Below are positions 98 through 55,272 of a DNA stretch of 64,000 nt, piece after piece (positions within the stretch are counted from its first letter, which is position 1; every line of letters begins with the position of its first letter). Source of the stretch: Apostichopus japonicus. Taxonomy: Eukaryota > Echinodermata > Holothuroidea > Aspidochirotida > Stichopodidae. The notes under the pieces were generated by a model. That model was given only the letters and a program-made list of their open reading frames with translations. It was not told the DNA's origin and made no database searches. A program made the position numbers and the translations under genes. The stretch is from assembly GCF_037975245.1 (NCBI RefSeq), contig NC_092579.1:13128678-13192677 (forward strand), given 5' to 3'.

Positions 98-770
98 CTA
101 CTATATATCCCATATTTTGCTGTGCCCACTTATTGTTCCTATCTAGGCCCTGTGTCTTTCCCTTCCTCTCATTCTGCCTTTCCTTTTTCGACAAAGTGTG
201 TTAATCTCCATCCGATAGAGATGGTACCCGGCTTGCACGTTGTATTATAAAACTACTGTTGAACTCCATGAACTTGTATTTTCAATGTGGGGAAGTTTGT
301 TTCGTTACGAACCGAGGATGTGGTCTTCTTCAAAGTCCCTTTCAATACGCAAGAATCTGACAATAGAACAGATGACGTTAAACTTCGTGGCTGATGCAAT
401 ACCTAAATGCGATGTACAAAGAGCCGAATTATTCATTTTGTTAATGTTTCTCCGCGTAAAAACAAAGTTATACTTCTCCAAGATGTGGCACCAATAGAAA
501 TAATTTCGGTTCATTTCCCCCCTAGCAACAAAGAGTATCATAACATTTTTTAGAAGGTTCCCGTTCAGATTTTATGAAAGAAATTTCATCGCGAGAGAAA
601 CAGATGGGTTCGTTGTGAAAGAATAATCCGCCGGTGATCACTACCTCAGTCGCGCGAAAAGTGCATACGTACGTGTGTTTATGTACATAACACACAGTAT
701 AAACATAGATTGTACGTACAATTATACATATATTGTACTATCGCAAACTTTCAACATTGCCTTTTACATA
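98..770. other. unassigned region upstream of ATF4
   Basis: No convincing gene. Short open frames on both strands (about 85 and 78 codons between 240 and 541) overlap each other and resemble no family I know. The last ~150 bases are likely ATF4 promoter or leader, but I see no clear TATA box or other decisive core element. Confidence 0.4.
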
Positions 771-773
771 ATC

Positions 774-845
774 ATGCTGAAAAGAAGAGAAACTCACCGC
801 ACCGAAGGAAAACCTGATTTAACGCTAATCATGGCGCTTTTATAG
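774..845 (+). promoter_or_regulatory. ATF4 uORF1 (4 codons, or 23 codons from an upstream in-frame ATG)
   Basis: ATG at 831 opens a four-codon frame (M-A-L-L) that stops with TAG at 843-845, 61 bases before the uORF2 start. An earlier ATG at 774 is in the same frame and would extend it to 23 codons if transcription starts upstream of 774. A very short uORF1 ahead of an overlapping uORF2 is the known vertebrate ATF4 leader arrangement (uORF1 of three codons), where it lets ribosomes resume scanning. The match is positional and structural. The transcription start is not known. Confidence 0.6.
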
Positions 846-906
846 CAAAACGGCAACCCAACTCTGTGCAATTCCAACGCGGATTGTGCCCGGCAACATA
901 TTAACC

Positions 907-2207
907 ATGGCGTAAGTTTTTTGGGGGAATAATTTTATCCTAAACTTCATTGAGGAAGTGAGGTTGTTAGCGTATGACTAACTACGCAATACGCCTAATG
1001 TTAAATATTAGTTCGTTAGGCTATTTAGGTCACGGTTTTCAAACATATGTTCGAAATTGAATTACAATTTACTAATAAATAGTTGGATTGTTTGACAAAA
1101 TTACTCATTTTATTAATCACAAGTTATTTCTCCCTTTGTAACGAATGTGAACGAGTGTTTGGTCTAGGCATATTCGAAAAAATAAATCCCTGATTTTCTC
1201 AAGTTTTGGGAAGTGTGATCTGTTATGGAACTTTGATGGATACACGTACGTAATGTTCAACAGCATATTGTATTGGGCACGACATGGCATACAAAACCTA
1301 GGAATTAATGAATAAGGGTAAAGCTGGGACATGTCATGAGTGGTACAACAGTTCTAGACTTAGGCCTAGGCCTAGTTTCATCAAAATTAGTGCATCCAGG
1401 ATAGTAAAACAATTCACACAATGTTAAAATTGCATCACAAATGCAATAATATAGCCTAGGCATCAGCACCTTGGAAAAATGTAATCTATCCTATAGTCTA
1501 GAAAACAGAAGATTCCTGCAAAAAATCATGCATAGATGGACATCAAATGCCCTTCAAAACTTCATAAGTTTGACACTCTTTATGAAATGATACCCATGTC
1601 ATGTGAATGCAAATGAATACCCTCCTATTGAATAACTATGTCACAAGCCTCACCACATCAGCAGGTACATACTTTATGATTTGTATGCAAATAATTGAGA
1701 AGTGAAACTCCTGGAGTTGCAGGTACTTGGCTCCAAAATGTGCAAACCTAGTTACTGTCATGATTACCATACCAATGTATGTTTTGCTCATAGCCATGTT
1801 TGTACCAACATGCTAAGTAGGGAAGCATATGTTTGTCCTGTGCAAGCTGATGGATGTTCTGTGCTGGCTTTTCAGTTGTTGCACCACATTCTTACCAAGA
1901 GTTAGCCATGGATGTTAGTTGAAACTATGATGGTTATTGGTCTATTGAGTTGCATTTTGCAAAACATGTTTTCAAATATAAACTTACAGTATGTTAAAAT
2001 GTTACTCCTTTCTATTCCTTCAGGACCTACAAATCCCAATACACTCGGCTTGCCTTAGCAGCATATGATTTCGTGGAACCATCATCAAAACCAGTTGATT
2101 TATTTGAAGAGTCTTTAGATGAGTTACAACAGCAACATGATGACTTCAATGGAGACCATCACATTTCCGTCGTCCCTCGTAGGGGACGACCTCTCAATTT
2201 GGTCTAA
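907..2207 (+). promoter_or_regulatory. ATF4 uORF2 (62 codons, spliced, overlaps the ATF4 start out of frame)
   Basis: The start ATG at 907 has strong context (ACCATGG). Two bases after it comes a perfect GTAAGT donor at 912. The exon resumes at 2024 after a CAG acceptor. Joining 907-911 to 2024-2207 gives an uninterrupted 62-codon frame ending TAA at 2205-2207. It is in a different frame from ATF4 and overlaps the first 89 bases of the ATF4 coding region (ATG at 2119). Vertebrate ATF4 uORF2 is 59 codons and overlaps by 83 bases, so the geometry is almost the same. Role by established knowledge of ATF4: when eIF2-GTP is plentiful, ribosomes translate uORF2 and miss ATF4; under eIF2alpha phosphorylation they scan past it. 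Confidence 0.8.
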
Positions 2208-3583
2208 TGACCTCCTCCCTAAGAATGAATTCCAGGATGGAGCCTCCCTGGATACTACCATCCAGCTTATGGATGCCCTGGTCGCCTGCAAGCAGGACCA
2301 AAAATCCTCATATCTCACTGCAGGTTTGTGTTTAAGTTTGAAGTTATATTCTTGTTGACAATCACAGGAACCACCCTATGGGTCCTTTCCTGACATTTGT
2401 ATCTACCTAGATAGGCTTCTTTCTTTTAAGTAAACTTGGCAGAAGAAAAGATGACATAATTGGGGGGGGGGGGGTGAGTGAGGGGGATATGAAAGTGTTG
2501 TCTATATTGGTTTTTCACAAAAGGTTGTGGACTAAGTTCTGTGTTTGGGGCTTAGTGTGTCACTTTGTGTCTACTTCACATCCTGTATTAAATTATTTGA
2601 CAAATTTGGCAGGTGTTGTGGGGTAGGGGAGAGTGGCTCTGGCTTATGTGGGATTGAAATTTGATGGGTACCTTTGGAACAGTTATTTCAATCTCAGCAT
2701 TGTGATTCAACAGAGTTGCATAATGGTCCGAATTTAATAAGATAACAATATTCTGGTTTTGTTTGTGTCTTCAGGTGATCAGAATGACCCACTCCCTGAC
2801 TGGATGTCAGAGAAAGTAGATGTCAGTAATTGGCTGGATGTTTTCGCAGGTAATTCTGCAAACCAAATGAATGAACTTGAAATGGACAGAATGTCACCTG
2901 CCAATGAACTTCTAAATACCTTTGAGGCGGATGAATCCAACATGTCAGATTTCTTCCTCCCGAAGACTTGCCTCGACGAAGAGCCATTCATGGCGTCTTC
3001 TCCGGGAAGTTCTATCGGAAGTGGGGGTTCTGGAGTTAACAGCAGTGTCTCCACCATGCCATCCAGCCCATATTCCATGGGAAGTGAGACCTCGGAAGGC
3101 GATTCCCTTCGGGAAACGGATCTCGGTACAGAAGACCCTGTAAGTCTGGAGTTACTCCTCAACACTTGCAAAGACGCCGACGTTTTCTTGCAACTCGCAG
3201 ACGTGCTTCCCATGGATCTGCCCTTGCCAGCAGAAGGAGACCTCAAAATGTTAGAGGAGACTGCAAACCAGATGCAGAGTGACCTTCAAAGAAAAGAAAA
3301 ATCAGCGTCGAAAGTCGGCAGAGGCAAGTCCAAGTCGAAAGGGGTAACGAAGGAGAGGAGAGAGAGGAAGAAAGGCCAAAACAAGGAAGCAGCGACAAGG
3401 TACAGGCAGAAGAAGAAGAAGGAAAGTGATTGTCTGTCCTCTGAGATGGAAGTCCTAGAGAAGGCCAATGGGGAACTTAAAGGCAAAGTCAGCTCCCTTG
3501 AACAAGAAATTCACTATCTGAAGGACCTCTTACAAGAGATCTGTAAGGTCAAAGGTCAAATTCAAATCCTCCAGTCACCGTAA
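2119..3583 (+). CDS. ATF4: Cyclic AMP-dependent transcription factor ATF4 (bZIP)
   Basis: Spliced coding exons are 2119-2323 and 2775-3583, with intron 2324-2774 (GT-AG, phase 1), giving 337 aa; human ATF4 is 351. A 5' leader exon ends at 911 and the leader continues from 2024. The N-terminus has an M-x-x-I-T-F-x-S-S-x-L-V-G-D-D-L run like the vertebrate start. Exon 3 opens with D-W-M-S-E-K-V-D, matching the vertebrate D-W-M-L-E-K-M-D segment. The middle is acidic and Ser-rich. The C-terminus is a bZIP: basic region with NKEAATRYRQKKKK, then a leucine zipper ending YLKDLLQEICKVK. The first ATG has weak context (T at -3); in-frame ATGs follow at codons 7, 8 and 11. I do not see the DSGxxS degron. 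Role: DNA-binding dimer that activates amino-acid, redox and stress genes in the nucleus. Transcribed toward GTPBP1 (tail to tail). Confidence 0.93.
2462..2473 (+). repeat. poly-G tract in ATF4 intron 2
   Basis: An uninterrupted run of about 12 G, followed by GTGAGTGAGGGGG. Similar G or C runs recur through the window (about 8290, 16426, 38436, 45755), often inside transposon copies. Confidence 0.8.
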
Positions 3584-4013
3584 CTTTTTGTGATCATCGT
3601 AAAGTTATAGTTATAACAGAAGACACTGTGCCCCCATCACTCCATCCGAAGGGGGGGAGGAGGGATTTGGGTTTGTCACTCTGCAGCAGAAAAGGCTGTT
3701 TGTGGAGATGAGATCTTGTTCGAGTTGGAAGTATGTGTTTTCACTGAATATTGTGAAAATCCATGCAATGACTTTTGATGATTAGTGTTATTGTAGTGCA
3801 TGGATTTAGCCGGCCTTGTCGGTTGACATGTAGAGGATTGTCAAGAAGAAGAAGAGCTAATTCATAAAATCGCTGTACTTAAGCAAGATGTCAAGTTATA
3901 TAGGTAAAGGGACATTGATAGTTCAATCAGTATTGTACATTTCAGGTAGATGGATTTGGAAGGAAGTAGACCATTTCTGTGTACTTTTAAGGTTTAAAGA
4001 ATTTTTTTTTTTA

Positions 4014-4019: not shown

Positions 4020-4926
4020 ACATTCAAGGATCAACCTGAATTGATGGAGTCATAAATTAGCATTTATGTAACCATCCTAGATGCAGTTAATGATACTGTA
4101 AAGCATCCAGCCACTTAGTGAGAATAAGAGTATATAATACCTAACAAAAAGCCAAATTTTGTCTGGAAACTTTAGTTTCCAGGGAGGCTCCACTTTGAAA
4201 AGTCATTGTTAATCGAGTTTTGCAGCAAGTTTCACTATGTGAACTAGTAAGTAATCTTTAAAAAAATTGAGAGAAAAAAAATGGTCAGCATAAAATGTAG
4301 CTAATTAGGAATCAAAATGGAAACAGTTGACTTCAAATGATGCTAAACCATCCAAACCAAGTTTGAATATTAATATCATTCCTAAGGCAATGTTCAAGAA
4401 TTATATTGATGTTGAATTATTATTTTTCATACCACACTATCCATATACAAACAAGAGTTTTTCAGTCATCTTCAGTTGTAATAACAGCAGTAGTTAACAG
4501 CTATTCCACTGAAATGCCTCAATTAACATCTTTTGTTGGACAGTTCACATCAACCTCATCTACCATCATTTCCTAAAATGTTGTGTCAAGTGTAGTGAAA
4601 ATTGCCTTACTAGTTGTTATTCTTGTTGATTTTTCTTGGATATCTTTCTAAGCATACATAACCAAGTAATTTTGAAAGTTGTGTAGCATTGCACTCCAAA
4701 AGTTTGAGATCATTCTGTAAATACATTTTCTTTTTCGTTTTGATGTTTAGATATATGGTGTTGGTAGAGATAGAATTCCTCGCAAAATGTTTGTCTGTTT
4801 CTGTTAGGGCAAATTTTTACGTTTCAAAAAAGGGTGAATCTGCATGGTATAGCTTGTATCAATATTGGGTGCAGGGTGCCCCTCTTGGAAATGAGTTTTC
4901 TCTTTCTTAGTGCAAGGAATGAATGT

Positions 4927-5228
4927 CACACAAAGAAACAATACACACACAGAAACAATACACACAAAGAAACAATACACACAAAGAAACAATACACACA
5001 AAGAAACAATACACACAAAGAAACAATACACACAGAGAAACAATACACACAGAGAAACAATACACACAGAGAAACAATACACACAGAGAAACAATACACA
5101 CAGAAATAATACACACAAAGAAACAATACACACAAAGAAACAATACACACAAAGAAACAATACACACAGAGAAACAATACACACAGAAATAATACACACA
5201 AAGAAACAATACACACAAAGAAATAATA
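4927..5228. repeat. 17-bp minisatellite, 18 units
   Basis: Unit CACACAAAGAAACAATA, with a variant carrying CACAGAG, repeated in tandem. By length the array fits 16 units of 17 bp and two 15-bp units (CACAGAAATAATA type). No frame of the unit contains a stop, and 17 is not a multiple of three, so long open frames appear on both strands; these are not genes. Confidence 0.95.
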
Positions 5229-5463
5229 CAATGAAGTAACAAAATCAATACATTACAACAACAAAAACTTCAAACAAAACAGCAAGTTTATTGATAAAGA
5301 TTTCGTAGAAATATCGGTTCTTAAAATCAATTTATTTATCTTCTGAAGAAATGGGGGCAAATGTTCATGGGTTAACACATTTATAATATTTTGCGACTCT
5401 TTAAGTATTTCTGTATATGATTTTTCCTTCAGTTGTTCCAGAGCTTTTGTGATATTAAATAAA

Positions 5464-6056: not shown

Positions 6057-6421
6057 CAGTGGCGTAGGAAGGTACTTTTGAGTGGGGGGGCTGAAGACTG
6101 ATGGCCGGCCTGGGGGAGGGGTCTAAGGGGAGGGGGTGTCCCCCTCCCCTTTGGAATTTTTTTGCATTTCCAGGTGGCCTCAGATGCAATTTGGTGCAAT
6201 ATAGCACACTTCAACACCCACTCCATTTTGTAAAGAATTTTGCATTTTCACCTGGCCTTAGATGCAATTTGGTGCTTCAAATGAGATTTTTTTCTCATTT
6301 GGAAATGAAAAAGGGGTTTTCTGACTTGCGGAGCGGGGGGGCGGAACGATACTTCCGCCCCCCCCATATTTTTCACTGGGGGGCTGGCGCCCCCCCAGCC
6401 CCCCCGGTCCCTACGCCCTTG
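6057..6421 (+). mobile_element. hAT-like non-autonomous element (MITE) with 8-bp TSD
   Basis: Starts CAGTGGCGTAGGAAGG and ends CCCTACGCCCTTG, imperfect terminal inverted repeats. It is flanked by a perfect 8-bp duplication TACACAAC at 6049-6056 and 6422-6429. CAG-type termini with 8-bp duplications are the signature of the hAT superfamily. No transposase is encoded. The interior has a GGCCGGCC box, G/C runs, and two diverged copies of a TTAGATGCAATTTGGTGC-like segment. Confidence 0.88.
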
Positions 6422-10256: not shown

Positions 10257-10730
10257 CTAGTAGTTTTCATGCTGTTGGTGGCCATACATTACCACTGGGT
10301 TTACAAGTGACGTCACTTTACTGCTTACGTCAAACTCGGTGTCAAAATTATTATAATAATCAGCAAGGTTTACTTTAACACCGTATCGACAACGGATAGC
10401 GAACATTTCGCAGCCGTAAAATTGGACGTTGTACCAGTCGATTCCGATCTGATCTTCAGCCGTCGATACGATTTCGTTCGGATCCAGAGGAGGATAATTC
10501 ATAACTAAATGTTTGTCGTTGTTAATTCGAACTAGTTTATTTCCCGCCACAACGCTAAGGTGTTCTTTCTTTGTCCACGGATGACGCACGTGTATGACGT
10601 AACCGGTTCCGATATAAACTGCCCAATGATTGAACGTGGAGTCTGGGTACTTTATTTCCAACAAATCCCCGACGTTACATTTCGTAAGAATCCGATCAAA
10701 TGTGGTATATTTATTCGTAGTATTACCCAT
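10257..10730 (-). CDS. LRAT/PLAAT (NlpC/P60-like) domain protein, single exon
   Basis: 157 aa with no intron in the coding region. The LRAT-type fold is visible: C-N-V-G-D-L-L-E-I at residues 18-26, H-W-A-V-Y-I-G at 35-41, G-Y-V-I-H at 43-47, and a helix with G-C-E-M-F-A-I-R-C-R-Y-G at 106-117. Expected catalytic residues are H35, H47 (12 apart, as in PLAAT enzymes) and C107. The usual N-C-E-H around the cysteine reads G-C-E-M, which is odd, while the following C-R-Y-G is LRAT-like. Family members are thiol acyltransferases or phospholipases acting on lipids. I see no C-terminal membrane helix, so it may be soluble or inactive. The start ATG at 10730-10728 is the only in-frame ATG upstream of the domain after a stop. 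A CRE lies 64 bases upstream. Confidence 0.75.
   Translation of the reverse strand: MGNTTNKYTTFDRILTKCNVGDLLEIKYPDSTFNHWAVYIGTGYVIHVRHPWTKKEHLSVVAGNKLVRINNDKHLVMNYPPLDPNEIVSTAEDQIGIDWYNVQFYGCEMFAIRCRYGVKVNLADYYNNFDTEFDVSSKVTSLVNPVVMYGHQQHENY
10308..10315. promoter_or_regulatory. CRE palindrome inside the LRAT-like coding region
   Basis: Perfect TGACGTCA within GTGACGTCAC, near the 3' end of the coding region. It may be chance coding sequence. Confidence 0.2.
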
Positions 10731-10793
10731 TGTGTCGGATACCAAATGAATGATCAATTCACAAACTATAGTTACGGTATACCTTCACATCAA

Positions 10794-21862: not shown

Positions 21863-34377
<12,515 letters not shown>

Positions 34378-52700: not shown

Positions 52701-54642
52701 TTCTTGCATTTTTTTCTCAACTGTTTAGCCTGTACTTTTCAGGAGTACATTTAGCTTTCCACTGTCACATGTCCTGTACATGAATAAGAAGACAGTCGCC
52801 ATTATAATGCAACTTAAATATTTTGCCTAGAAGCCTCTGAATCTAGAATTATTGTAGTAGAGCATTGAAGCATACCTTGGATTGTCATGTGAACAAGCTG
52901 CAGGGTCTTCAAGATATCTTGTGCAAGAAGTTTAAAGTACTGCTTTGGCAAAAATATGTCCCTATCAAATGTGTAATAAAGAAGAAGAAGAGAAAAACTT
53001 TATAAAATGTTGCATAATGACAAAATATCTTTCTCTAACAAAAATTAAGTACACTTATTAGTTAAATCTGAGAGCTGGGGATGGACTAGGATGGGGGAGG
53101 GAGGTGGCAAGAAAGAAGAGCAAATGTAATGCCTGACTTGCCTGTGGCTCTGATAACACCACGAGAGAAGGACAGGGATTTAATAGTCAAGTCAAAATTG
53201 CCTGAAGTGACCAATAGACAGGAGACAGATGAAATCATGCATTTAAATTTGAACCCCTCTTCTGTGCTTTGACCTTTACCAAACAAATTATGCAACTTTT
53301 ACTCACTATGGGGCATCCTTATATTAAGTATGAGATATGCAATCCATGTAAATTTGTCTTCTCGAGATGACATGTTAAAAAGCAACACCACTGGCTATAA
53401 CCACTCATGTAACAACAGCACCTGTACACACATGTCACAGTGGTAGAATAGGCCATGAATGTCATCAAGGTCAAAAATTGCTAGTGACTCTCAGCACTAA
53501 AGCCAACAGGCTTCTACATTTAGCAAGTGCTGAAAAGAGAACCCTTAGTATTAACTTACCAGTTGTCCACCTTTAACATGTTAGCCATTTTATCTGGTAA
53601 ACTTGTCAACAAGCTGATCGATTGATCCCAGGTTACTCTGGTCCTTTCCTTCATGGCTTTTCTTGTGGATGCTTCTTCCTCTGCTCCTTGATTGACCAAA
53701 CAATGATGCCAAAATAATCCAACTAGTCTGTGAGATTGCAAGAATTCAGCAAGAAGAGAAAGGCACTTGTTCCTTTTGAAGCTGGGGCTGAAATAAGGAA
53801 ATGTGTTTTGTTTCACATCCGTCATCCAAACACTGACAACATATAGTATGCTGAAAGGAGAGGTGCACTTTTGTTCTTGAAAATGTGACAAGTACTGTTA
53901 ATATACTCTTACGTCCTGGCTGGTTTTCCTTTTCAGAAAACTAAGGTAAGAGACGTAAAAGCTGGTCTCCCCTAACCCTCTTTCCCAAATCGACCTTCAC
54001 TGTAAAATCAACTTCACTCCTCTACATCTCAATATCATATTGGTACAAAAATGACAGAAAAAGCACTGATTTATTATTATGGCCTATGACTTGAGTGTTA
54101 ATTGAAATTGTCAGGTCATACTATATTATATATGATAAAAGCAAAAACCTTTCCTTTCATGGACAAAGCACTGTATAGTAAAAAACAAAGAAAGTGATAA
54201 AGATACATAGATATTAATTTGCATACCTGCTATTAAAAATTGATGAACAGAGGACAACCATTGCATCTTCTGGAGGTGCCGCGAGAAATACCTCATTGAA
54301 ACACTCCTCTCCATGTTTTTCACGTCCAAACTTTCCGAACCAGTCAAGGCCAAGTTGATTGATAAGATGTTCTGCAAGTTGCACATAATGCATCCTCACA
54401 AATTCTCTCTGGATTACCTTCCATTGAACAAGAGTTCTGCTTCCAGGAAATTTTTCTTGAAGCAAAGCAACCTGATCATCAGTAAAAGTGGACGGCTCCG
54501 TTGTTGGTAGTAACAGCGTAATCAGTTTGAAGATTTGAACGGCTTGGGAAGCATCTTGAGAATTTGACAGATCATGTCTACAAGTAATCACCAATGACTG
54601 GAGATGAGCTCTCTCTTCGGTACTCCAGTTTATCCCAGCCAT
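40785..54642 (-). CDS. TELO2: Telomere length regulation protein TEL2 homolog (TELO2), 19 coding exons
   Basis: Coding exons: 54642-54227, 53787-53560, 52961-52876, 52573-52505, 52146-51999, 51501-51330, 50481-50340, 49399-49183, 48435-48331, 47434-47346, 46763-46672, 46270-46154, 44957-44886, 44090-43917, 43684-43596, 43015-42916, 42683-42619, 42060-41945, 40912-40785. All phases join, giving 874 aa (human 837). It aligns with human TELO2 throughout: MNGMQAHLETPISRLRTMGM, the acidic linker with L-D-S-D-D-D-L-E-P-Y-D-M-S-G-D (S at about 528), A-A-Q-E-L-S-R-P, A-G-H-F-F-F-P-L, and R-L-V-H-T-L-A. It is an alpha-solenoid scaffold of the TTT complex (TELO2-TTI1-TTI2), which with R2TP/HSP90 stabilises PIKK kinases such as mTOR, ATM and ATR. 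For exon 17 I used the later donor (after 42619) because it restores the conserved R-Y-H-V-E-P-Y-V-R-R. The last exon may instead splice at GTAAAT after A-I-K-K. Confidence 0.93.
43680..43692. promoter_or_regulatory. X-box overlapping TELO2 exon 15 acceptor
   Basis: GTTGCCTAGCAAC, a textbook RFX palindrome. It overlaps the AG acceptor and first codon of TELO2 exon 15, so splicing and coding constraint alone may explain it. Confidence 0.2.
43818..43860. repeat. ATT microsatellite in TELO2 intron
   Basis: Imperfect (ATT)n run, about 40 bases, between exons 15 and 14. Confidence 0.8.
45728..46118 (+). mobile_element. hAT-like non-autonomous element in TELO2 intron 12
   Basis: Starts CAGTGGTGTCACCAA, ends TTGGCGACGCCACTG. 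It is flanked by a perfect 8-bp duplication CATCCTAG at 45720-45727 and 46119-46126. Poly-G and poly-C tracts sit inside each end. It is a diverged relative of the 6057/25138 family, sharing the TTAGATGCAAT segment. It inserted only 35 bases from the exon 12 boundary, measured from the element end; the duplication ends 27 bases from it. Confidence 0.88.
46920..47275 (+). pseudogene. LINE (CR1/L2-type) 3' end fragment with reverse-transcriptase tail
   Basis: 46983-47186 encodes R-F-Y-Y-A-G-S-P-L-W-N-E-L-P-A-S-I-R-S, then L-F-K-S-K-L-K-T-H-F-F. This is the well-known C-terminal tail of CR1/L2/RTE-like non-LTR polymerases (pattern PxLWNxLPxxIRxxxSLxxFKxxLKTHLF). It is followed by a short 3'UTR with GTAAAGTGCATTATAA and an (ATT)n tail, as expected. 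The rest of the polymerase is absent, so it is a 5'-truncated dead copy. It lies in TELO2 intron 10, antisense. Confidence 0.8.
51151..51164. promoter_or_regulatory. X-box (RFX-type) palindrome in TELO2 intron 6
   Basis: GTTGCTATGGTAAC, a near-perfect palindrome matching RFX sites. Intronic; function unproven. Confidence 0.3.
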
Positions 54643-55272
54643 CTGTCTATATTGTTATTAAAGAACAGAATGTTTCCAGTGCTTAAAGAACAGAATTTTA
54701 CCTGAACCTGCAAACATTTGTTAAGTATTAGGTAACCCTCCTCCTGATTTTATGTGCAAACTTCTTCTTGCCTTCTGAAATGGGCTGCTTGTATGATTTC
54801 ACCTGTAAGACCCAAAGAACGATACTATTCAAGAGCAGAAATCTAACACAGGCTAGCCACGAATTGAAAGTAGTCCTATAGGCCTAAGCTCTCTAACGGT
54901 CATATACAAAACGAGAGATTTTGCTGGCGCATGATCTGTTGGGCGGGGCTTGCAAATTTGATTAAATTTTGTAGAATCTACAGATTCGTTAATAAATCTG
55001 GGGAATTTTATTCAGCTCAAAATGTTTAACGACAGATAATTCAATAAAAATAATGAATATGAAAATTGCATACAGAACGATGTTAATAACTGTTATTTTC
55101 ACTGAGCTTTTAGTTTTAGGGCAGTAAGCTTGAAAGGTAAAAGTGAAAATTTGGCAAACACATATTGAGACTTTAAACAAAAACATTCCAGTACTAATAG
55201 TAATATCAGGAACAGACTATGCAACTAAATTTTACTAGTAATATTACTGGCTCATCGGAATATACATACAAA
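54643..55272. promoter_or_regulatory. TELO2 promoter and leader region
   Basis: Upstream of the TELO2 ATG there is an acceptor-like ACAG directly before the start codon, so a non-coding first exon is likely further up. A GGGCGGGGC (Sp1-type) box sits at about 54941-54949, with no TATA box evident. The start of transcription is inferred to be near it. Confidence 0.4.

What the first reader, a model, noticed from the sequence alone, without database searches (positions are those of the whole stretch)
774..2207. Vertebrate-type two-uORF stress-response switch in the ATF4 leader, with an intron splitting uORF2 just after its start codon
Seen: a 4-codon uORF1 (831-845), then uORF2 starting at 907 in ideal context, spliced 912/2023 two bases after its ATG, 62 codons long, overlapping the ATF4 frame by 89 bases. 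Known: mammalian ATF4 has a 3-codon uORF1 and a 59-codon uORF2 overlapping by 83 bases. Inference: the eIF2-gated delayed-reinitiation circuit is conserved here. Because the uORF2 ATG is at the exon edge, failure to splice would give an immediate stop (ATG GCG TAA) and so a different translational output. Splicing could therefore act as a second layer of control.
Basis: partly seen in the sequence, partly recalled or inferred. Interest (0 to 1): 0.75.

Follow-up and report, generated by a model that had tools for sequence, protein, structure and literature searches.

The report
Sea cucumber ATF4 stress-switch leader
This is the ordinary animal ATF4 stress gene of a sea cucumber, with the two small decoy reading frames known from other animals, plus an unusually strong RNA hairpin placed where vertebrates have one.

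Summary
An ATF4 gene carries a 4-codon uORF1 (831-845) and a 62-codon uORF2 split by a predicted intron (907-911 + 2024-2207) that overlaps the ATF4 frame by 89 nt. The assembly fits the sea cucumber Apostichopus japonicus. Paired ATF4 uORFs are already published for arthropods, Aplysia and Hydra, and a human 5'-leader splice variant is published too, so neither part is new in kind.

(1) ATG774 is in frame with uORF1 and makes it 23 codons if transcription starts upstream.
(2) A weak-context uORF3 (2065-2118) ends directly before the ATF4 ATG.
(3) Intron retention would swap uORF2 for 42 intronic ATGs, which argues against a simple splicing switch.
(4) A 9-bp hairpin (2169-2190) sits in the uORF2/ATF4 overlap, where human ATF4 has SL3. 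It gives the most stable of 1614 40-nt mRNA windows, and 1 of 3000 synonymous recodings matched it. Its C-run comes before its G-run, apparently opposite to human, and an AUG rather than a CUG lies 20 nt upstream.

Splicing, transcription start, conservation and translation could not be tested.

The parts
698..703 (+). TATAAA motif, possible core promoter element; if used, transcripts would include ATG774
   Evidence: 45 such motifs on the + strand of the window, 0.14 per 200 nt, so it may be chance
774..845 (+). Longer version of uORF1 from an in-frame upstream ATG (23 codons)
   Evidence: matters only if transcription starts upstream of 774
831..845 (+). uORF1, 4 codons (MALL), strong start context (A at -3, G at +4)
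907..911 (+). uORF2, exon 1 part: start codon plus two bases
912..2023 (+). Predicted intron 1 (1112 nt), GTAAGT...TTCAG; holds 42 ATGs
   Evidence: splice scores; ATG count; no RNA evidence
2024..2207 (+). uORF2, exon 2 part (62 codons in all), -1 frame relative to ATF4, overlaps ATF4 by 89 nt; it has no further ATG in frame
2065..2118 (+). uORF3, 17 codons, weak context, in the ATF4 frame; its stop directly precedes ATG2119
2119..2323 (+). ATF4 coding sequence, exon 2 part; in-frame ATGs at 2119 (weak context), 2137, 2140, 2149
2149..2151 (+). In-frame ATF4 ATG exactly 20 nt upstream of the hairpin
2169..2190 (+). 9-bp, 4-nt-loop hairpin inside the uORF2/ATF4 overlap
2324..2774 (+). Predicted intron 2
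   Evidence: joining 2323 to 2775 gives the open 337-codon ATF4 frame
2775..3583 (+). ATF4 coding sequence, exon 3 part, with the bZIP domain at about 3356-3529
   Evidence: domain coordinates converted from residues 263-320

Best explanation
This is an ATF4 gene of a sea cucumber whose leader works as the general animal ATF4 switch. Ribosomes translate a short uORF1 and resume scanning. When eIF2 ternary complex is plentiful they reinitiate at the strong uORF2 start, read through the ATF4 start in the -1 frame and stop at 2207. When eIF2-alpha is phosphorylated more of them pass uORF2 and start ATF4. In addition the hairpin at 2169-2190 probably slows ribosomes in the overlap, which would strengthen uORF2 repression and favour a late ATF4 start such as AUG2149 (that added step taken alone: about 0.45). 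Shown here: the frames, the gene identity, the predicted hairpin and its unlikelihood under free codon choice. Inferred: the splice junction, the transcription start, reinitiation, and any pausing.
For: Frames, contexts and -1 relation as in human; spacings 61 nt from uORF1 stop to uORF2 AUG, 100 nt to ATG2119, 150 nt to the hairpin. bZIP and ATF-4 matches. Paired arrangement in 0.26% of 20,000 shuffled leaders. eIF2-alpha exon with SELSRRRIRS, PF10488 match. Paired ATF4 uORFs known in other invertebrates. Hairpin: z -4.0, 0 of 200 shuffles for 2150-2207; first of 1614 mRNA windows; 1 of 3000 synonymous recodings, and 2, 6, 6 and 4 of 2000 in four other versions.
Against: No transcript, 5'-end or ribosome data and no related species, so splicing, uORF1 length and conservation are untested. 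ATG774 may make uORF1 23 codons, over the roughly 20-aa limit given for reinitiation. The donor ranks only 18 of 217. Overlapping strong-context uORFs alone arise in 5.0% of shuffles. For the hairpin: 81 of 31,980 40-nt windows on both strands of the 64 kb are as stable; by the energy of the whole overlap 23 of 2000 recodings do as well; the AUG at 20 nt may be chance, as 4 of the first 17 codons are Met. In the related sea cucumber H. glaberrima the listed stress-response factors did not change in expression under the treatment tested (mRNA levels, not translation).
Confidence: 0.8

Rival explanations
1. The first uORF is really the 23-codon frame from ATG774. Control is then mainly by leaky scanning past 774 and 831, with little reinitiation.
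For: ATG774 is in frame with no stop before 843 and has A at -3. A TATAAA at 698 would place transcription starts upstream of it (distance rule recalled). PMC4176352 reports extra weak-context uORFs upstream of uORF1 in arthropods.
Against: TATAAA is expected 0.14 times per 200 nt here. ATG774 has C at +4, whereas ATG831 has A at -3 and G at +4. Short uORF1s are the rule in the species surveyed.
Confidence: 0.25
2. Retention of intron 1 is a second control layer: unspliced RNA loses uORF2 and gives a different ATF4 output.
For: Unspliced reading ATG GCG TAA is real and uORF2 has no other ATG. A longer human splice form (V1) is described, with IRES-type translation and, in one study, about 30% more polysome association of V1 in the unfolded protein response. 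Retention of a mouse Atf4 intron (intron 2) is reported in granulocytes.
Against: 42 ATGs in the intron, 4 in strong context, lie before the ATF4 start. V1 is not the majority form in human and was absent in two cell lines. No RNA data for this species.
Confidence: 0.1
3. The hairpin is a chance by-product of codon use and has no role; the leader works by uORFs alone.
For: Single genome, no conservation test. 81 of 31,980 windows of the 64 kb fold as well. Whole-overlap energy is matched by 23 of 2000 recodings.
Against: 1 of 3000 recodings and 2, 6, 6 and 4 of 2000 match the local energy; none of the 227 recodings that kept uORF2 open did. It lies where human SL3 was found by experiment.
Confidence: 0.4

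Closest known systems
Paired-uORF translational control of animal ATF4 (mammals, insects, a mite, Aplysia, Hydra; PMC4176352)
   Same: Short uORF1 in good context, long uORF2 overlapping ATF4 out of frame, several in-frame ATF4 AUGs, and a third short uORF overlapping uORF2.
   Different: uORF1 has 4 codons against 3 in human, and uORF2 62 against 59. An in-frame ATG774 lies upstream of uORF1. Echinoderms are not mentioned in the main text of that survey (its figure and supplement were not seen).
SL3 hairpin with ribosome queuing in the human uORF2/ATF4 overlap (PMC11058473)
   Same: A stable hairpin inside the overlap with a start codon 20 nt upstream; the 150 nt between uORF2 AUG and hairpin would hold several ribosomes.
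   Different: AUG in place of CUG; C-run in the 5' arm, whereas the human description implies the G-run comes first (inference); human AUG3 is in the loop, here no ATG is in the hairpin. Function untested.
Human ATF4 transcript variant V1 (longer 5' leader by splicing)
   Same: An intron in the 5' leader whose retention would change the leader.
   Different: Intron here is 1112 nt; the human difference is 590 nt by the V1/V2 numbering in PMC12839439. That the human intron also lies just after the uORF2 ATG is recalled and was found in no call.

Membership tests
ATF4 paired-uORF switch | Downstream gene is an ATF4-type bZIP factor | tested here: met
   PF00170 E 3.8e-14; 1ci6 ATF-4 E 1.8e-11, next ATF-2 4.9e-4
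ATF4 paired-uORF switch | Short uORF1 in good context upstream | tested here: inconclusive
   831-845 present, but ATG774 lengthens it to 23 codons if transcribed
ATF4 paired-uORF switch | Longer uORF2 in strong context overlapping the ATF4 start out of frame | tested here: met
   depends on the predicted 911/2024 junction
ATF4 paired-uORF switch | eIF2-alpha with the Ser51 region, and kinases | tested here: inconclusive
   eIF2-alpha motif exon met; the PF12745 (GCN2-type by recall) matches are weak, E 7.0e-4 and 7.8e-4; other kinases not searched in this genome, but reported in H. glaberrima
ATF4 paired-uORF switch | Stress raises ATF4 translation through the uORFs | not testable with these tools
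   no ribosome or reporter data
ATF4 paired-uORF switch | Arrangement kept in related species | not testable with these tools
   no relatives held for this genome; viral-contig scan gave none
SL3-type overlap hairpin | Stable hairpin inside the uORF2/ATF4 overlap | tested here: met
   (predicted fold)
SL3-type overlap hairpin | Near-cognate CUG 20 nt upstream | tested here: not met
   no CTG in 2119-2168 in any frame; an in-frame ATG is at that spacing
SL3-type overlap hairpin | Same arm order as human SL3 | tested here: not met
   C-run in 5' arm here; human G-run first inferred from the text, not from an alignment
SL3-type overlap hairpin | Ribosome queue and effect on output | not testable with these tools
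   no data
ATF4 V1-type intron retention | Intron in the 5' leader | tested here: inconclusive
   good predicted sites, no transcript
ATF4 V1-type intron retention | Intron-retained transcript in the cytoplasm | not testable with these tools
   no RNA data

The most novel reading that the evidence does not exclude
A ribosome-slowing hairpin in the uORF2/ATF4 overlap is not a vertebrate invention. An echinoderm has one at the same place but builds it with the opposite arm order and pairs it with an AUG instead of a CUG, so selection would keep the barrier and not the sequence. It would act with uORF2 as a two-part brake and would favour a slightly shortened ATF4 from AUG2149 under stress.
Probability: 0.3. 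Interest if true: 0.6.

Novelty: new member of a known kind. Interest (0 to 1): 0.36.

Why it matters
It describes the ATF4 paired-uORF anatomy in an echinoderm and gives a testable case that the overlap hairpin, described for vertebrates in the paper seen here, is older or has arisen more than once. If so, ribosome slowing in the overlap would be a basic part of ATF4 control rather than a vertebrate refinement. It also shows why the 5' end must be mapped before uORF1 is called short.

Tried and rejected
Related species: the window's genome has no relatives in the genome search, and an ATF4 scan of viral contigs gave 5 pattern matches, none confirmed as a relative. Genome contigs and metagenome contigs were not scanned. 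So uORF2 and the hairpin could not be tested for conservation. The uORF2 peptide has no Pfam match at E 0.001, and at E 10 its only match in its own genome is itself. Repeats in 560-4000 showed nothing bearing on the question.

Human intron position: searches (listings) and passages did not say where the V1 segment lies relative to uORF2, so identity of position stays a recollection. Sea cucumber ATF4 uORFs: searches (20 of 750 listed; 15 of 19 listed) showed none by title or abstract start; of these I opened only PMC9657328, where 'uorf' occurs 0 times. One search listed 10 of 24 papers, each with 0 hits for 'echinoderm'; the other 14 were not seen. One search listed 2 of 2, not opened.

Other folds were unremarkable: 2024-2118, 774-911 and 2208-2320 gave z 0.24, 0.07 and -0.82. 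One search used exon 2 ending at 2322, one base short; corrected to 2323.

Full report
What it is. The window lies in an assembly of 671,581,487 bases in 35 contigs. The published Apostichopus japonicus assembly has 671.6 Mb in 34 scaffolds (PMC10344927, passages). An arginine kinase fragment joined by hand from exons on contig C8 agrees with PDB 3ju5 at 220 of 222 aligned residues (my count on the alignment; that 3ju5 is from A. japonicus is recalled). I take the source to be this sea cucumber. The ORF 2119-2323 + 2775-3583 encodes 337 aa with a C-terminal bZIP (PF00170, E 3.8e-14). The better of two solved-structure matches is ATF-4 (1ci6, E 1.8e-11). A 259-aa query finds one match at E 0.001 in the genome, the gene itself, with 17 of 17 candidates scored.

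Checking the observation. uORF1 is 831-845. uORF2 starts at 907 and, if 911 is joined to 2024, has 62 codons and ends at 2207, 89 nt into the ATF4 frame, in the -1 frame as in human. Unspliced it reads ATG GCG TAA. The acceptor is the best of 234 AG sites in 560-4000; the donor is 18th of 217 by a textbook matrix from memory, with a perfect GTAAGT and a poor last exon base. The exon 2 part of uORF2 has no ATG in frame, so its AUG start depends on this splice. In 20,000 shuffled leaders, a short strong-context uORF followed by an overlapping strong-context uORF appeared in 0.26%, and an overlapping strong-context uORF alone in 5.0% (criteria set after seeing the case).

ATG774 and ATG681 are in frame with uORF1. 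[quoted passage not shown] A TATAAA at 698 could give such transcripts, but 0.14 such motifs are expected per 200 nt. A third frame, 2065-2118, lies in the ATF4 frame, has weak context and ends directly before ATG2119. The figure legend in PMC4176352 notes that a third short uORF overlapping uORF2 is often found in the animals listed outside arthropods (section 13).

The hairpin. Human ATF4 has a hairpin (SL3, -15.4 kcal/mol) in the middle of the uORF2/ATF4 overlap, with a CUG 20 nt upstream. Unfolding it raised reporter output 1.3- to 1.8-fold, and a ribosome queue was proposed (PMC11058473, sections 5, 10, 15 and 28 and passages). I had seen those passages before folding the same place here. 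Bases 2169-2190 form a 9-bp stem with a 4-nt loop. Bases 2150-2207 fold at -23.7 kcal/mol, z -4.0, with 0 of 200 shuffles as good; the whole overlap has z -2.56, 2 of 200 (5 stretches folded). It gives the most stable of 1614 40-nt windows of the mRNA (774 to 3989, introns removed), although 81 of 31,980 sampled windows on both strands of the 64 kb are as stable. Recoding the overlap with synonymous codons reached its energy in 1 of 3000 trials, and in 0 of the 227 trials that also kept uORF2 open. With other codon weights and window lengths it was 2, 6, 6 and 4 of 2000; by the energy of the whole overlap, 23 of 2000. Pair probabilities in an 807-nt context are 0.84 to 1.0. There is no CTG in 2119-2168, but the ATF4-frame ATG2149 lies exactly 20 nt upstream of the stem. 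Four of the first 17 codons are Met, so this spacing may be chance. The C-run is in the 5' arm here; the human text implies a G-run first and a C-run after it (inference). The two stems are alike in place, not in pairing.

Most likely mechanism. Delayed reinitiation as in other animals: uORF1, then uORF2 when ternary complex is plentiful, ATF4 when it is scarce (model as given). The pathway parts I looked for are present to this extent: an eIF2-alpha exon with the SELSRRRIRS motif, a PF10488 match (PPP1R15-type by recall, E 4.4e-10), two weak PF12745 matches (GCN2-type by recall, E 7.0e-4 and 7.8e-4) and 5 W2-domain matches, not told apart. Transcripts of the sea cucumber H. glaberrima include ATF4 and the four eIF2-alpha kinases but not CHOP; none of the listed factors changed in expression under the treatment tested, and the authors saw no active stress-response signalling there (PMC9657328, section 13 and table passages). 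The hairpin probably adds a brake in the overlap; that step is inference, at about 0.45.

The splicing idea. Retention would remove uORF2, but it inserts 42 ATGs, 4 in strong context, and none of the 46 ATG frames between 774 and 2118 runs past 2119. I expect a poorly translated or decaying RNA. Human V1, a longer splice form of the leader, is described as IRES-translated (PMC5754368 passage), differs from V2 by an internal leader segment (PMC12839439 passage), is not the majority form (PMC6321046 passage), and was absent in two cell lines (PMC7047134 passage). Its polysome association rose about 30% in one study (PMC5042567 passage). The original 2013 paper was not seen. If so, the exon-edge ATG is an old shared feature and not a novelty.

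Verdict. A known kind of system in a group for which I saw no report (searches; listings only, apart from PMC9657328 and PMC11058473, which were opened). One addition is of interest, the overlap hairpin, whose role and conservation are untested.

Noticed in passing
window 10260-10784 (-): Open frame of 175 codons with an LRAT (lecithin retinol acyltransferase) domain, E 1.2e-18, over the curated cut-off.
   Followed up: partly
window 54217-54654 (-): Open frame of 146 codons with a weak Neurochondrin match, E 0.0084, below the curated cut-off.
   Followed up: no
window 6125-6404 and 25196-25477: Two stretches about 19.07 kb apart share three similar G/C-rich hairpins in the same order, so they look like copies of one repeat element.
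   Followed up: no
window about 4920-5240: Tandem array of an 'acacaaagaaacaat'-like unit about 1.3 kb downstream of the ATF4 stop codon (seen).
   Followed up: no
G000 C20:18443595-18446393 and C20:18474619-18477417 (L001-L003): Two near-identical clusters about 31 kb apart, each with three phosphagen-kinase domain matches in one 989-codon open frame.
   Followed up: no
window 2119-2149: The first ATF4 ATG (2119) has weak context and is predicted fully paired in an 807-nt fold, while 2137 has A at -3; the true ATF4 start may be one of the later ATGs.
   Followed up: partly
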